Source: an uncultured Acetobacteraceae bacterium (lineage in GTDB: Bacteria > Pseudomonadota > Alphaproteobacteria > Acetobacterales > Acetobacteraceae). Taken from it: a stretch of 64,000 bases of DNA. Below, piece by piece: positions 5,686-62,537 of this stretch. The stretch covers positions 1-64,000 of the forward strand of contig CAIXDS010000201.1 of NCBI GenBank assembly GCA_903918195.1. The letters are read 5' to 3'. A program made the translations under genes and the position numbers. Numbering within the stretch: the first letter of the stretch is position 1; the number at the start of each line of letters is the position of its first letter. The notes under the pieces were generated by a model, which saw only the letters and a list, made by a program, of their open reading frames with translations, was not told the DNA's origin and searched no databases.

Positions 5686-8451
5686 ATGTCGGGCCGCGAC
5701 GTCCGGCCTTCGCCGGAAGCCCTGCTGAAGGAAGCCGCCCGCGAATCCGGCCGCGGGCGGCTGAAGATTTTCCTCGGCGCCGCCCCCGGGGTGGGCAAGA
5801 CCTATGAAATGCTGTCGAGCGGGCAGGCGCGCCGGCACGACGGTGTCGATGTGGTGGTCGGCGTGGTCGAAACGCATGGCCGCGCCGAGACGGCTTGCCT
5901 GCTCGAGGGGCTCGACGTCCTGCCGCGCCGCCAGATCGACTACAAGGGCCAGACGCTGGAGGAGATGGACCTCGACGGCCTGCTGGCCCGCCGGCCGGCG
6001 CTCGCCCTGGTCGATGAACTTGCCCACAGCAACGCGCCGGGCAGCCGCCACCCGAAGCGCTACATGGATGTGGAGGAATTGCTGGCCGCCGGCATCGACG
6101 TCTGGACCACGCTGAACATCCAGCATGTCGAGAGCCTCAACGACGTGGTCGCCCGCATCACCCGCATCCGCGTGCGCGAGACGGTACCGGACGGCGTGCT
6201 GGACCGCGCCGATGAGATCGAGGTGGTGGACCTCACGCCCGACGACCTGATGCAGCGGCTGCGCGGGGGCAAGGTGTATGTGCCGCACACCGCGGCGCGC
6301 GCGCTGGACCATTATTTCTCACCCGGCAACCTGACGGCGCTGCGCGAGCTGGCACTGCGGCGCACCGCGCAGCGGGTGGACGCGCAGTTGCTCGACCACA
6401 TGCAGGCGCACGCCATCAGCGGCCCCTGGGCGGCCGGCGAGCGCGTGCTGGTATGCGTGGCCGGAACCGGCAGCGGGCCTGCGCTGGTGCGCTATGGCCG
6501 CCGGGTGGCCGAGCGTCTGCGCGCGCCCTGGACGGCGCTGCACGTCGAGACCGCCTCCCGCGCGGAGCTGTCCGAGGCGACCCGCACCAACATCGCCGAC
6601 GCGCTGCGCCTGGCCGAGCGGCTGGGCGCCGAGGCGGTGACCATCCCCGGCCACGACGTGCCGGGCGACATACTGGCCTATGCGCGCGAGCGGAATTTTT
6701 CCCATCTGGTGGTGGGCCGGCCAACCCGGACCGGTCCGTTCGGCTGGCTGCGCTCCAGCTTCGCCACCGCCCTGATCGACCGGGCCGGCGACATTCCCGT
6801 GCACGTGGTCGGCGGCGGCGATCCCCGCACCGCCCGCGCGCCGGCCCCGCCGGCGGCGCGCGACGTCCGGCCCTGGCCGTACGTCGCCAGCACCTGCATC
6901 GTGGCGGCGGCGGTGCTGGTCGGGCTCGGGCTGCAGCTTGTGCTGACGGTCAGCAACATTTCGCTGGTGTTCCTCACCGCGGTGCTGGTGACCGCCGCGA
7001 CGTTTGGCCTGTGGCCGTCACTGTATGCCTGCATGATCAGCGTGCTGGCCTATAATTTCTTCTTTCTGCCGCCGGTCTACACCTTCACCATCGCCGATCC
7101 CGAGAACGTGGTGGCGCTGTTCTTTTTCCTGGTGGCCGCGCTGATTGCCGGCAACCTCGCCGCCGGCATGCGCGCGCAGGCGCTGGCGGCGCGCGGACGG
7201 GCCGGCACGACCGAGGAACTCTATCGCTTCAGCCGCAAGCTGGCCGGCATCCTCGACATGGACGACCTGCTATGGGCCACCGCCTACCAGGTCGCGACCA
7301 TGCTGAAGGTGCGCGTGGTGCTGCTGCTGCCGGAAGGCGAACACAGGGGCGAGGGTCTCGCCGTGCGCGCCGGCTACCCGCCGGAGGACGAACTCGACCC
7401 GGCCGACCTAGCGGCCGCTTCGTGGTGCTGGAAGAACAACCGCGAGGCCGGCAGGGGCGCCGACACGCTGCCCGGCGCACCCCGGCTGTTCCTGCCGCTG
7501 CGCACCGGCAGCGGTCCCGTCGGCGTGCTCGGCATCGACCGCGAAGGGCCGGTGACCGACACCACCCGCCCGCTGCTCCCCCCCGACCAGCGCCGCCTGC
7601 TCGATGCGCTGGCCGACCAGGCGGCGGTGGCGATCGAACGGGTGAACCTCGCAGCGGACGTCGACCGCACCCGCCTGCTGGCCGAGACCGAGCGGCTGCG
7701 CTCGGCGCTGCTGACCTCGATCTCGCACGATTTGCGCACCCCGCTCGCCGCCATCCTGGGCGCCGCCAGCGGGCTGGAGAGCTACCACGCGCTGCTGGAC
7801 GAGGCCGGGCGGCGCGACCTGCTCGCCACCATCCGCGACGAGGCCGAGCGGCTGAACCGCTTCGTCGGCAACCTGCTGGACATGACCCGGCTGGAATCGG
7901 GCGCGCTGGCGCCGCGAATGGAGGCGGCCGATCTCGGCGAGATGGTCGGCGCTGCTCTGGCCCGTGCCGGACGCGTGCTGGCCGACCACCGGGTGGAGAT
8001 GGACCTCGCCCCCGACCTGCCGCTGCTGAAGATCGACCCGGTGCTGTTCGAGCAGGTGTTGTTCAACCTGCTCGACAACGCGGCGAAATACGCCCCCGAG
8101 GGCAGCACCGTGATGCTGCGCGCCTGGCACGAAACCCTGCCCGGCACGGAACGGCAAAGGATGGAACGGCTGGTGCGGCTGCAGGTGATCGACGAGGGGC
8201 CGGGGCTGCCCGAGGACGCGCTTGAACGGGTTTTCGACAAGTTTCACCGCATCGCCGGCGGCGACCGCCAGCGCGCCGGCACCGGTCTCGGGCTGGCGAT
8301 CTGCCGCGGCTTCGTCGAAGCGATGGGCGGCAGTGTTTCCGCCAGCAACCGGCGGGACCGCTCCGGCGCGGTGTTCACCGTCACCCTTCCGGCCCACCCG
8401 GCCAGTGCGGACATGCCGGTCCGCACCACAGCGGAGGACCCGCCGGCGTGA
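5686..8451 (+). CDS. kdpD: Sensor histidine kinase KdpD
   Basis: Membrane sensor for K+ limitation/turgor, 921 residues. Domains: N-terminal KdpD domain with P-loop GAAPGVGKT at 31-39; a USP-like domain around 255-375; four closely spaced membrane helices (about 396-495); a GAF-like linker; HisKA with [11 protein letters not shown], phospho-acceptor His681; and an HATPase domain ending around 900. It phosphorylates KdpE, whose GTG start overlaps the kdpD stop by 4 bp. Unlike E. coli, where kdpDE can be transcribed separately, no gap or promoter is visible before it. Confidence 0.97.
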
Positions 8452-9146
8452 CCGGGCAGAGCGTGCTGATCGTCGATGACGAACCGGCCATCCGGCGCCT
8501 GCTGCGCACCAATCTCGGCGCACAGGGCTACCGCACGCTGGAGGCCGCCAGCGGCGCCGAGGCGCTGGCGCGGATCGCCGCCGACCGGCCGGACGTGGTT
8601 ATTCTGGATCTCGGCCTGCCCGACCGCGACGGCCTCGATATCATCCGCACCGTGCGTGCCAGCAGCGCCGTGCCGATCGTGGTACTGACCTCGCGCGAGG
8701 CCGAGCGGGCCAAGGTGGAGGCACTCGACCTGGGTGCGGATGACTACGTGACAAAACCGTTCGGCATGGACGAGCTGATGGCCCGGCTGCGCACCGCGCT
8801 GCGCCACCGGCTGGCGCAGGACGGCGCGCAGCCGGTGTTCCGCAGCGGCGATCTGGAAGTCGATCTGGTCCGCCGGCACGTCCGGGCGGGCGGCGCAGAA
8901 AAGAAACTATCGCCACGGGAGTGGGATATCCTGACCCTGATGGTCGCGCATGCAGGCCGCGTGCTGACCCACCGCTTCATCCTCGGCCGCCTGTGGGGCG
9001 CAGGGGGCGACGTACAACAGTTGCGGGTATATGTGAGACAGATTCGTCAGAAGATCGAGGCCGACCCCGAGCGGCCCCGCCATATCCTCACCGAGACCGG
9101 CGTGGGCTACCGCCTCGCCGAGCATGAGATGCCGCATGACGCTTGA
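8448..9146 (+). CDS. kdpE: Response regulator KdpE
   Basis: OmpR/PhoB-type transcription factor of 232 residues that activates kdp. Receiver domain with acidic pair at 10-12, phosphoacceptor Asp54 ([10 protein letters not shown]) and Lys in TKPFG, then a winged-helix DNA-binding domain ending [13 protein letters not shown]. The GTG at 8448 overlaps the kdpD stop (GTGA), indicating translational coupling. It is followed at once by a PtsN-like gene, an uncommon addition to a kdp operon. Confidence 0.97.
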
Positions 9147-9576
9147 TGAGCTGATCCCGCCCGACCACGTGTTCGACCGCCTGCGCGCGGCCGACAAGGC
9201 GGCGTTGCTCGGTGCGCTCGCGCGGGCGGCCGGCGAATTGCTCGGTCTGCCGCCGGCCGAGATCGCCGCGGCGCTGGCCGCGCGCGAGGCGCTCGGCTCG
9301 ACCGGAATCGGTGGCGGCATCGCGGTGCCGCATGCCAGGATGAGCGCGCTGGCGGCCCCGTCCGGGTTCTTCGCCCGGCTGGACCGGCCGGTCGCCTTCG
9401 ACGCGGTCGATGGCCGGCCGGTCGATCTGGTTTTCCTGCTGCTCAGCCCGGCGGCAGACGGGGAGCATCTGCGCGCGCTCGCCGCGGTGTCGCGGCGGCT
9501 GCGCACGCCGGGCGTAGCCGAGGCGATGCGCACCGCCGCCCCCGCCGCCCTGCGGGCGGCCCTGCTGGGAGCATAG
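9136..9576 (+). CDS. PTS EIIA (PtsN/EIIA-Ntr-like) protein in the kdp operon
   Basis: 146-residue PTS_EIIA_2-type domain. The phosphorylatable histidine is His66 in GGGIAVPHARM, the family signature. Start chosen at the ATG at 9136 (MTLDELIPP), overlapping the end of kdpE by 11 bp; an ATG at 9124 adds four residues. In E. coli the dephosphorylated PtsN protein contacts KdpD and stimulates kdp expression, so its place directly after kdpDE suggests a dedicated phospho-regulator of K+ uptake. That functional link is inference here. The cognate EI-Ntr/NPr partners are not in the window. Confidence 0.85.
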   Translation: MTLDELIPPDHVFDRLRAADKAALLGALARAAGELLGLPPAEIAAALAAREALGSTGIGGGIAVPHARMSALAAPSGFFARLDRPVAFDAVDGRPVDLVFLLLSPAADGEHLRALAAVSRRLRTPGVAEAMRTAAPAALRAALLGA

Positions 9577-31080: not shown

Positions 31081-31139
31081 GGGTCCACCAGGGGCCTCTC
31101 GGCCCTTGGCGGGTCCAGGGCAGAGCCCTGGCCTTCCTT
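31081..31139. repeat. GC-rich palindromic element, copy A
   Basis: Begins GGGTCCACC and contains two hairpins: one with nine-base arms at 31088-31096 and 31101-31109 (one G-T-type mismatch) and a perfect one with CCAGGGC at 31115-31121 and GCCCTGG at 31125-31131 around AGA. The second hairpin is preceded by GGGTCC and followed by CTTCCTT. The same order of blocks occurs at 57780-57830. Lies between the YceI gene start and the end of the methyltransferase-like gene. Confidence 0.75.
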
Positions 31140-60745: not shown

Positions 60746-61123
60746 CGGCGGCGGCGCCGGAGCGGCGGAGGAATGAGCCCGGGCTGACCTTCGCTTGGCG
60801 GGGCTCCGCCCCGCGCCCCGCCAGGGCTCCGCCCTGGACCCGGCAGGGGCCATAGGCCCCTGCACCCCGAATTATATGGGTTCCAAGGGCGACGCCCTTG
60901 GCGGAGGTGCAGGAGGCGGAGCCTCCTGCCGGGTCCGGGGCAGCGCCCCGGATCGGGAACGATGATCATTTTTCGGGCAGGTTGGGATTGTACCAGCGGC
61001 GCCGCTGAACGACCCGTTTCGACCCGAAGCGGTCAAATTGACGCCCCTCTCGCCGTTTCAAGTTGGACCTGCTATCGTCCGAATGGCAAGGTACGTGAAC
61101 CATAACTCTTTGCCAGGCGACGC
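60746..61123. other. Intergenic region secA / ATPase gene
   Basis: 378 bp with no gene. The first two thirds are an array of six perfect GC-rich hairpins (60798-60951). The last part, from about 60960, changes abruptly to an AT-richer composition that continues into the following ATPase gene, suggesting the edge of an inserted segment. Probably acts as terminator for secA. Confidence 0.7.
60798..60951. repeat. Array of six perfect hairpins, two inverted three-hairpin modules
   Basis: Perfect stems with three-base loops: GCGGGGC 60798-60804 / 60808-60814 (loop TCC); CCAGGGC 60821-60827 / 60831-60837 (TCC); GCAGGGGCC 60843-60851 / 60855-60863 (ATA); CCAAGGGC 60883-60890 / 60894-60901 (GAC); GCAGGAGGC 60909-60917 / 60921-60929 (GGA); CCGGGGC 60935-60941 / 60945-60951 (AGC). 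The linker ACCCG at 60838-60842 is mirrored by CGGGT at 60930-60934, so the two halves are inverted copies around a short AT-rich centre (60869-60877). Confidence 0.92.
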
Positions 61124-62428
61124 ATGAGTGCACCATTAACGCCGACCGATGTCTTCACGCCGAACGACTTCCCACGCCACACGTACGTATCTCGGTCAGC
61201 TAATCCTCCATTTGAAGGTCGGCTTCGGAATGCTTTGGCGATCCCGAAGGAAGTTATATCAATATCTGGGCCATCGAAATCAGGCAAGACAGTCCTAATC
61301 GAACGGGTGGTTGACGCTGACAACCTTATTACCGTTTCTGGATCTGAGATTTATTCTGCTGATGCTTTATGGGATCGCGTGCTGGATTGGATGGGGGCGC
61401 CGTCATCGCGAACCAATGCCTCCAGCAGTGCAACGACAAGCGGCAGGTCAGGGCAAATCGGTGGATCGCTTAGCCTTCCATTTGGTGCCTTTACCGGGAA
61501 GGCATCGGCATCGGCCCAGGGGGGCAATACGACCACCGAAGGTATCACGTCTACACAAGATCGTCGCGGAATGGCGCAGGTTCAGGAAGAAATTGGTGAT
61601 AGTTCATTTTGTGTACTTGTTGATGATTTCCACTACATTGCGACTGAGCTGCAAGTCGAGATCGGTCGGCAAATTAAAACGGCAGCCGAGCGAGGTATTC
61701 GAATCATCGTGGCATCAGTTCCTCATAGGTCGGACGACGTTGTCCGGAGCAACAGCGAGTTGCGTGGTAGGACCCAAAACATCGATATAGGATTCTGGGA
61801 CAATTGCGAACTTTTGGAGATCGCCAAACTAGGGTTCCGGGCGCTCAACATGCATCTGAGTGACGCTGTCCTTAAGGAGCTCGCTGAGAACTCCTGTGGT
61901 TCACCGCAGTTAATGCAACGCATCTGCCTGAATTTGAGCGTCAGCCTTGGTGTGGTTGCTGCCTACGAAGCAACCCGTTACGTCGCTGACAATGAAATTA
62001 ACCTAAGAAACGCACTACTGACTACCTCCACAAGCTGTGATTATAAAACATTGCTGACTACCATGCATGGTGGCCCAAAAACTCGTGGAATGGAGCGGAA
62101 TAAGTATGATTTCATCGACGGATCACGGGGCGATGTGTACCGATGTATTTTGCTTGCGATAAGGCAAGACCCGCCCCTGATGGACCTACCGTATTCTGTC
62201 CTGATGGAGCGGGTTCGCAGCGTTTGCATCGAAGAAGCGCCTATGGGACGAGGTGTTACCGAGGCATGCGGCCAGATTTCGGAATTCGCGACCAAGGACC
62301 GCACTGTTGAATTCGATACGGACGCAGATGTAGAAACTTTCCACATATCTGATCCTTACTGGCTGTTCTACCTTCGCTGCTCACCCAAAATGGAAGAGTT
62401 GGCCAAAGATCACCATGCCGGGCATTAG
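61124..62428 (+). CDS. Uncharacterised P-loop ATPase (AAA/STAND-like), foreign-looking composition
   Basis: 434 residues. Walker A GPSKSGKT at 49-56; a Gly/Ser/Thr-rich insertion about 95-145; Walker B FCVLVDDFHY at 162-171; a sensor-like IIVASVPHRSDD at 194-205; then a helical lid with ENSCGSPQLMQRICLNLSVS around 255-274, of the type seen in ORC/STAND ATPases; a C-terminal winged-helix-like part ends SDPYWLFYLRCSP. GC content is near 50%, against about 70% around it, and codon use differs accordingly. No partner gene is adjacent. I recall similar lone ATPase genes in many bacteria without assigned function; a defence role is only a guess. Confidence 0.85.
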   Translation: MSAPLTPTDVFTPNDFPRHTYVSRSANPPFEGRLRNALAIPKEVISISGPSKSGKTVLIERVVDADNLITVSGSEIYSADALWDRVLDWMGAPSSRTNASSSATTSGRSGQIGGSLSLPFGAFTGKASASAQGGNTTTEGITSTQDRRGMAQVQEEIGDSSFCVLVDDFHYIATELQVEIGRQIKTAAERGIRIIVASVPHRSDDVVRSNSELRGRTQNIDIGFWDNCELLEIAKLGFRALNMHLSDAVLKELAENSCGSPQLMQRICLNLSVSLGVVAAYEATRYVADNEINLRNALLTTSTSCDYKTLLTTMHGGPKTRGMERNKYDFIDGSRGDVYRCILLAIRQDPPLMDLPYSVLMERVRSVCIEEAPMGRGVTEACGQISEFATKDRTVEFDTDADVETFHISDPYWLFYLRCSPKMEELAKDHHAGH

Positions 62429-62483
62429 TCGCGAATGAAATGCGCTCATGCGCAAGCGAGAAAGTTCGGCATTCTGATCGGGG

Positions 62484-62497
62484 CCTGCGCAAGCAGG
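62484..62497. terminator. Short hairpin between the ATPase gene and livF
   Basis: CCTGC at 62484-62488 pairs with GCAGG at 62493-62497 around a GCAA tetraloop, in the 109-bp gap between two convergent genes. No T-run; termination is only plausible from position. Confidence 0.25.
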
Positions 62498-62537
62498 TCG
62501 GCTCACCACCCAAACCGGCCCGTGACACCCCCCCGCC

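What the first reader, a model, noticed from the sequence alone, without database searches (positions are those of the whole stretch)
61124..62428. AT-rich P-loop ATPase gene with no family name, inserted next to secA
The sequence shows an intact 434-residue ATPase with Walker A (49-56), Walker B (162-171), a sensor-like segment and an ORC/STAND-like lid, plus a Gly/Ser-rich insertion between the two Walker motifs. Its GC content is about 20 points below its neighbours and the change begins right after the hairpin array, which points to horizontal transfer. Single-gene, sporadically acquired ATPases of this shape are good candidates for defence or stress-sensing functions; that part is inference.
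Basis: partly seen in the sequence, partly recalled or inferred. Interest (0 to 1): 0.65.

Follow-up and report, generated by a model that had tools for sequence, protein, structure and literature searches.

The report
Mobile prophage-type ATPase, defence candidate
An AT-rich gene between secA and livF encodes a stand-alone ATPase of a rare, mobile family that prophages carry as an optional extra gene and that is already listed as an untested anti-phage candidate (PDC-S59); its unusual part is a long Gly/Ser-rich beta-hairpin planted in the ATPase core.

Summary
In detail: 61124-62428 (+) is an intact 434-codon gene, GC 51.5% against 68% in its flanks. All 6 congeners held lack it; in three of them secA and livF are still neighbours, with unrelated cargo between. 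The protein is not nameless: it and 39 relatives all match PADLOC's PDC-S59, a candidate defence family for which I found no paper. Pfam gives only a sub-threshold AAA_22 hit. AlphaFold (pLDDT 88.8) shows an AAA+/STAND-like core, lid and C-terminal winged helix, closest to archaeal ATPases (2qen) and Cdc6/Orc1. The Gly/Ser-rich insertion is a beta-hairpin splitting helix 2, with a disordered tip. Relatives are sporadic, AT-richer than their flanks in 37 of 40 loci, and in prophages lie beside CI-type repressors or inside tail, head and recombination modules: moron behaviour. Across the family the insert shows beta-amphipathic periodicity around a hydrophobic tip, though weakly in this protein. 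I infer a single-gene superinfection-exclusion or abortive-infection switch. The proposed effector, hairpins of an oligomer inserting into the membrane, is speculative. Enrichment in defence islands was not demonstrated and no activity has been tested. Horizontal transfer is well supported; defence is likely but inferred.

The parts
61124..62428 (+). PDC-S59-family AAA+/STAND-like ATPase gene, 434 aa
61151..61195 (+). N-terminal family motif VFTPNDFPRHTYVSR (residues 10-24)
   Evidence: V10, F11, P17, R24 nearly invariant, Y21 invariant
61268..61291 (+). Walker A GPSKSGKT (residues 49-56)
   Evidence: G49, K52, G54, K55 invariant in 40/40
61406..61561 (+). Helix-2 beta-hairpin insertion, Gly/Ser-rich, disordered tip (residues 95-146)
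   Evidence: AlphaFold model; composition and periodicity
61610..61636 (+). Walker B and FHY motif (residues 163-171, CVLVDDFHY)
   Evidence: H170, Y171 invariant
61769..61771 (+). R216, invariant, at the arginine-finger position just before beta 5
   Evidence: 40/40; beta 5 is 217-221 in the model; position of the arginine finger per PMC5039278
61898..61918 (+). Lid motif GSPQLMQ (residues 259-265), GxP-like
   Evidence: Q265 invariant; P261 in 30/40
62135..62383 (+). C-terminal winged-helix region (residues 338-420) ending in DPYWLFYLR
   Evidence: model, conservation

Best explanation
The gene is a horizontally acquired, single-gene accessory ATPase of the PDC-S59 family, of the kind prophages carry as a moron, and most likely an anti-phage (superinfection-exclusion or abortive-infection) switch. 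Proposed working: the winged helix and lid hold the ATPase inactive; an infection cue releases it; ATP binding, with the invariant R216 reaching into the neighbour's site, drives ring or spiral assembly; assembly brings the helix-2 beta-hairpins together near the axis, where they act as effector. My first choice is that their amphipathic strands and hydrophobic tips insert into the inner membrane and depolarise the infected cell. Shown: the gene, its family, predicted fold, mobility and prophage carriage. Inferred: defence (about 0.65), oligomerisation (about 0.6), membrane insertion by the hairpins (about 0.25).
For: Matches PDC-S59 (E=1.1e-27), as do all 40 members. Absent from 6 of 6 congeners; variable secA-livF slot. 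Gene AT-richer than flanks by more than 3 points in 37 of 40 loci. 36 viral-contig relatives; beside phrog_4 repressors in L054, L058, L063, L065, L066; between tail genes in L083 and L077, beside head genes in L079, near RusA in L072. AAA+/STAND-like fold with closest matches 2qen, Cdc6/Orc1, NLR resistosomes. Invariant R216 at the arginine-finger place. Insert is beta-periodic in 37 of 40 members, mean z 1.53, alpha mean z -0.50.
Against: No activity tested. Defence-type neighbours are few and no control was run. The beta periodicity is weak in this protein (z 0.71) and negative in its nearest relative (z -0.98); the sequences are related, so scores are not independent. The hairpin tip is modelled at pLDDT under 50. 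One plasmid member, L020, lacks the hairpin, and two (L021, L022) have a short one, so it is not essential family-wide. Many chromosomal copies, including this one, lie alone among housekeeping genes.
Confidence: 0.5

Rival explanations
1. Same defence ATPase, but the hairpin is a sensing or substrate loop: in the assembled ring it binds DNA or a phage protein, and the ATPase remodels or blocks that target instead of attacking the membrane.
For: Helix-2 inserts of other AAA+ proteins mediate target contacts (NtrC; PMC5039278). The fold is closest to ORC/Cdc6-like DNA-binding ATPases and also resembles DNA-binding MuB and TnsC. Members with a short or no hairpin exist.
Against: The hairpin is rich in acidic as well as basic residues and has a hydrophobic tip, unlike a DNA-binding loop. 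The residue at 168 is Asp or Asn, not the usual catalytic Glu, which speaks against a vigorous motor.
Confidence: 0.25
2. A mobile accessory ATPase without defence function: a regulator, stress-response or replication-related protein spread by prophages and plasmids.
For: Lone copies among housekeeping genes; morons serve many functions; winged helix and ORC-like fold would suit a DNA-binding regulator.
Against: No conserved neighbour suggests a pathway. Sporadic presence and family membership in a defence-candidate profile.
Confidence: 0.2
3. A transposition ATPase of the TniB/TnsC/MuB kind left behind by a transposon.
For: 11 of 40 members have weak TniB matches; TnsC and MuB are among the fold matches (Z about 13.6).
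Against: No transposase or TniQ-like gene was recognised beside the gene here or in the relatives read; the C-terminal winged helix and the lone, repeated moron positions do not fit.
Confidence: 0.04

Closest known systems
PADLOC PDC-S59 (candidate single-gene phage defence family, PDLC05049)
   Same: The window protein and all 39 aligned relatives match the profile.
   Different: The window protein sits in a separate VFTP branch and matches over profile positions 14-285 of 428 only; the best matches include the VFGVSRDP branch. Function of PDC-S59 is unpublished as far as I could find.
Archaeal Walker-type ATPases (2qen from Pyrococcus abyssi; 2fna, SSO1545; Pfam ATPase_2)
   Same: Best fold match: 2qen Z 19.7, rmsd 5.6, 304 aligned; 2fna Z 16.5, rmsd 6.2, 300 aligned. 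ATPase_2 is matched weakly by 13 of 40 members.
   Different: Sequence identity 13-16%; the long helix-2 hairpin here was not compared with those structures in detail.
Cdc6/Orc1 initiators
   Same: Core, lid and winged helix align: 1fnn Z 17.2, rmsd 7.5, 312 aligned.
   Different: No initiator-type extra helix between beta 2 and alpha 2 in the model; no link to an origin.
NLR/STAND proteins (NRC4 resistosome, CED-4)
   Same: Nucleotide-binding module: 9cc9 Z 14.8, rmsd 6.5, 304 aligned; GxP-like lid motif in most members.
   Different: No separate effector domain and no repeat sensor; invariant arginine at the AAA+ arginine-finger place.
AAA+ helix-2-insert clade (NtrC, McrB)
   Same: Beta-hairpin inserted in helix 2 (definition in PMC5039278).
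   Different: Lacks the pre-sensor-1 hairpin that the superclade requires; GAFTGK in this protein is not conserved in relatives.

Membership tests
PDC-S59 | Significant match to the PADLOC profile | tested here: met
   E=1.1e-27, residues 15-295 to profile 14-285/428; 40 of 40 members
PDC-S59 | Protects against phage | not testable with these tools
   needs an experiment
AAA+ ATPases | Walker A and B, sensor 1 region, arginine finger before beta 5, helical lid | tested here: met
   definitions in PMC5039278. Whether R216 acts in trans is untested
AAA+ ATPases | Catalytic Glu in Walker B | tested here: not met
   position 168 is Asp in 32 and Asn in 8 of 40; not universal in the superfamily
[quoted passage not shown]
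   model: beta 2 68-72, then alpha 2 79-89, no helix between; definition
Orc/Cdc6 initiator clade | C-terminal winged helix that binds origin DNA | tested here: inconclusive
   winged helix predicted; DNA binding not testable
STAND NTPases | GxP-type motif in the lid/winged-helix module | tested here: inconclusive
   GSP at 259-261; G in 27, P in 30 of 40; criterion from own knowledge of the STAND literature
STAND NTPases | Fused effector and C-terminal sensor repeats | tested here: not met
   the 434-aa chain ends after the winged helix; no such domain in the model
[quoted passage not shown]
   H79-89, E95-104, E137-146, H150-157
[quoted passage not shown]
   alpha 3 174-189 runs straight into beta 4 193-198; definition
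TniB/TnsC transposition ATPases | Linked transposase or TniQ partner | tested here: inconclusive
   none recognised by eye among neighbours read; no exhaustive profile search

The most novel reading that the evidence does not exclude
A minimal single-chain NLR-like switch whose death effector is built into the ATPase core: on assembly, the helix-2 beta-hairpins of all subunits meet near the ring axis and form a membrane-spanning beta-structure, with no separate effector or sensor domain.
Probability: 0.18. Interest if true: 0.85.

Novelty: new member of a known kind. Interest (0 to 1): 0.45.

Why it matters
PDC-S59 is an uncharacterised candidate for which I found no paper. This work adds a separate branch, a confident fold, prophage moron positions and one specific testable element, the helix-2 hairpin. 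If it defends by hairpin insertion, it would be a self-contained NLR-like immune switch with its membrane-active part inside the nucleotide-binding domain.

Tried and rejected
GAFTGK at the hairpin tip looks like the GAFTGA loop of sigma-54 activators: rejected, no relative keeps it. Hairpin array as the boundary or mobility device: rejected, it is a dispersed native repeat. Flanking direct repeats that could mark an insertion: none convincing. Promoter scan: nothing above chance. Rfam hits over the repeat lie far below their gathering scores. A viral-contig scan with the single sequence found nothing; the alignment found 36. Three family hits at about 1e-4 (G515, G533, G634) look like chance; L017 reads as a cytidylate kinase. 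PDB sequence hits such as RecA and RuvB are P-loop background. No E. coli DNA match to the VFGVSRDP-branch gene of L076. A second model, of L076 (pLDDT 83.3), keeps the architecture, but its insert is low confidence. Paper searches for PDC-S59, mad8 and related terms found nothing on this family. A matched control for defence neighbours was not run, so no enrichment is claimed.

Full report
Observation. The gene at 61124-62428 (+) is intact, 434 aa, with the motifs described. Its GC is 0.515 against 0.678 in the flanks, and it is the lowest-GC stretch of its size in the window. Purifying selection is visible against the 68%-identical Roseococcus copy (L002): differences at codon positions 1/2/3 are 0.28/0.19/0.66. 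The own genome has one copy.

Locus in relatives. None of six congeners has the gene. In three (G570, G638, G665) secA and livF are still neighbours, but the interval holds other genes: read by eye from the translations, a PAP2-like membrane protein, an amidohydrolase-like protein, and transporter-like genes. In the Roseococcus locus neither secA nor livF is found in the 21 kb fetched. The slot is therefore variable and the gene is an insertion. The hairpin array before it is native: parts of it follow secA in two congeners without the gene, and the own genome has 49 matches to it.

Family. Pfam gives only a sub-threshold AAA_22 match, NCBIfam nothing near a cut-off, PHROGs one family of unknown function, phrog_6841, E=3.5e-6. 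PADLOC gives PDC-S59, E=1.1e-27. All 40 near full-length members of A2 match PDC-S59. The tree separates a VFTP branch with the window protein from a distant VFGVSRDP branch. Invariant in 40/40 are Y21, G49, K52, G54, K55, L58, H170, Y171, R216, W225 and Q265. Position 168, where AAA+ proteins usually have the catalytic Glu, is Asp in 32 and Asn in 8; I infer slow turnover and switch-like use of ATP.

Distribution. Solid matches (E under 1e-40) occur in 8 of 299 genomes of the family and 6 of 398 in the phylum sample; the PDC-S59 profile finds 3 of 385 in the class sample. The window's own genome is counted in each. Relatives lie on plasmids of Bacillota, Actinomycetota and Pseudomonadota, in one Clostridioides phage and in 36 viral contigs. 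Gene GC is lower than flank GC by more than 3 points in 37 of 40 loci, in AT-rich and GC-rich hosts alike.

Prophage positions. Repressor-like proteins (phrog_4) lie beside the gene in L054, L058, L063, L065 and L066. In L083 the order is major tail protein, phrog_791, ATPase, a small protein, tape measure protein; L077 has the same two upstream genes. In L079 the gene lies between a minor head protein and a head maturation protease, and in L072 near a RusA-like resolvase. Insertion at four different kinds of place is how morons behave, and prophage accessory genes often include defence systems (PMC9122126). Defence-type neighbours are scattered: ThsB-like (L024), WGR_XIII (L031), PDC-S14 (L059), PDC-S15 (L061), and a few methyltransferases. 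No control was run, so enrichment is not claimed.

Structure. AlphaFold gives pLDDT 88.8, pTM 0.84: P-loop core, lid, winged helix. Best fold matches are 2qen (Z 19.7, rmsd 5.6, 304 aligned), 2qby_A (Z 17.3, rmsd 8.8, 319), 1fnn_A (Z 17.2, rmsd 7.5, 312), 2fna_A (Z 16.5, rmsd 6.2, 300) and the NRC4 resistosome 9cc9_G (Z 14.8, rmsd 6.5, 304). Helix 2 is split by a beta-hairpin: base strands 95-104 and 137-146, tip 104-138 disordered. AAA+ clade 6 also has a helix-2 insert but requires a pre-sensor-1 hairpin (PMC5039278) that is missing here, so the protein resembles that clade in one feature only and is not filed there.

Hairpin. The insert is rich in G, S, T and A (45% against 25% in the rest of the proteins). 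Its beta hydrophobic moment exceeds the mean of its own shuffles in 37 of 40 members (mean z 1.53), while the alpha moment does not (mean z -0.50). Hydrophobic tips recur (GIPLIA, LPFLA, GWQWLAGLIG). The signal is weak in this protein (0.71) and negative in L002 (-0.98), and one plasmid member (L020) has no hairpin. The sequences are related, so the scores are not independent.

Mechanism. Shown or directly seen: mobility, prophage carriage, predicted fold, invariant arginine at the arginine-finger place. Inferred: nucleotide-driven oligomerisation, infection sensing, and a hairpin effector at the membrane. The main rival within the same frame is a hairpin that binds DNA or a phage protein. The tests that would decide are listed under next steps.

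Noticed in passing
window 60796-60960: GC-rich hairpin array after secA is a dispersed REP-like repeat: 49 matches in the own genome, parts also behind secA in two congeners, a related copy at 31101-31128.
   Followed up: partly
window 60746-62537 (secA-livF interval): The interval is a variable slot in the genus: three congeners carry three different unrelated cargoes there (L045, L046, L047).
   Followed up: partly
L012/L018 (G547), L009 (G469), L057: Apparently broken copies of the family: split over two contigs at about residue 235, an in-frame TAG, and a frame change, which fits rapid turnover or assembly breaks.
   Followed up: no
L084:2951-4298 (-) and 8004-9302 (+): Two diverged copies of the family lie about 4 kb apart on opposite strands of one viral contig.
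   Followed up: no
L003: A contig labelled Bacteroidetes carries a relative nested near the proteobacterial branch, in flanks of 65% GC; possibly a misbinned contig.
   Followed up: no
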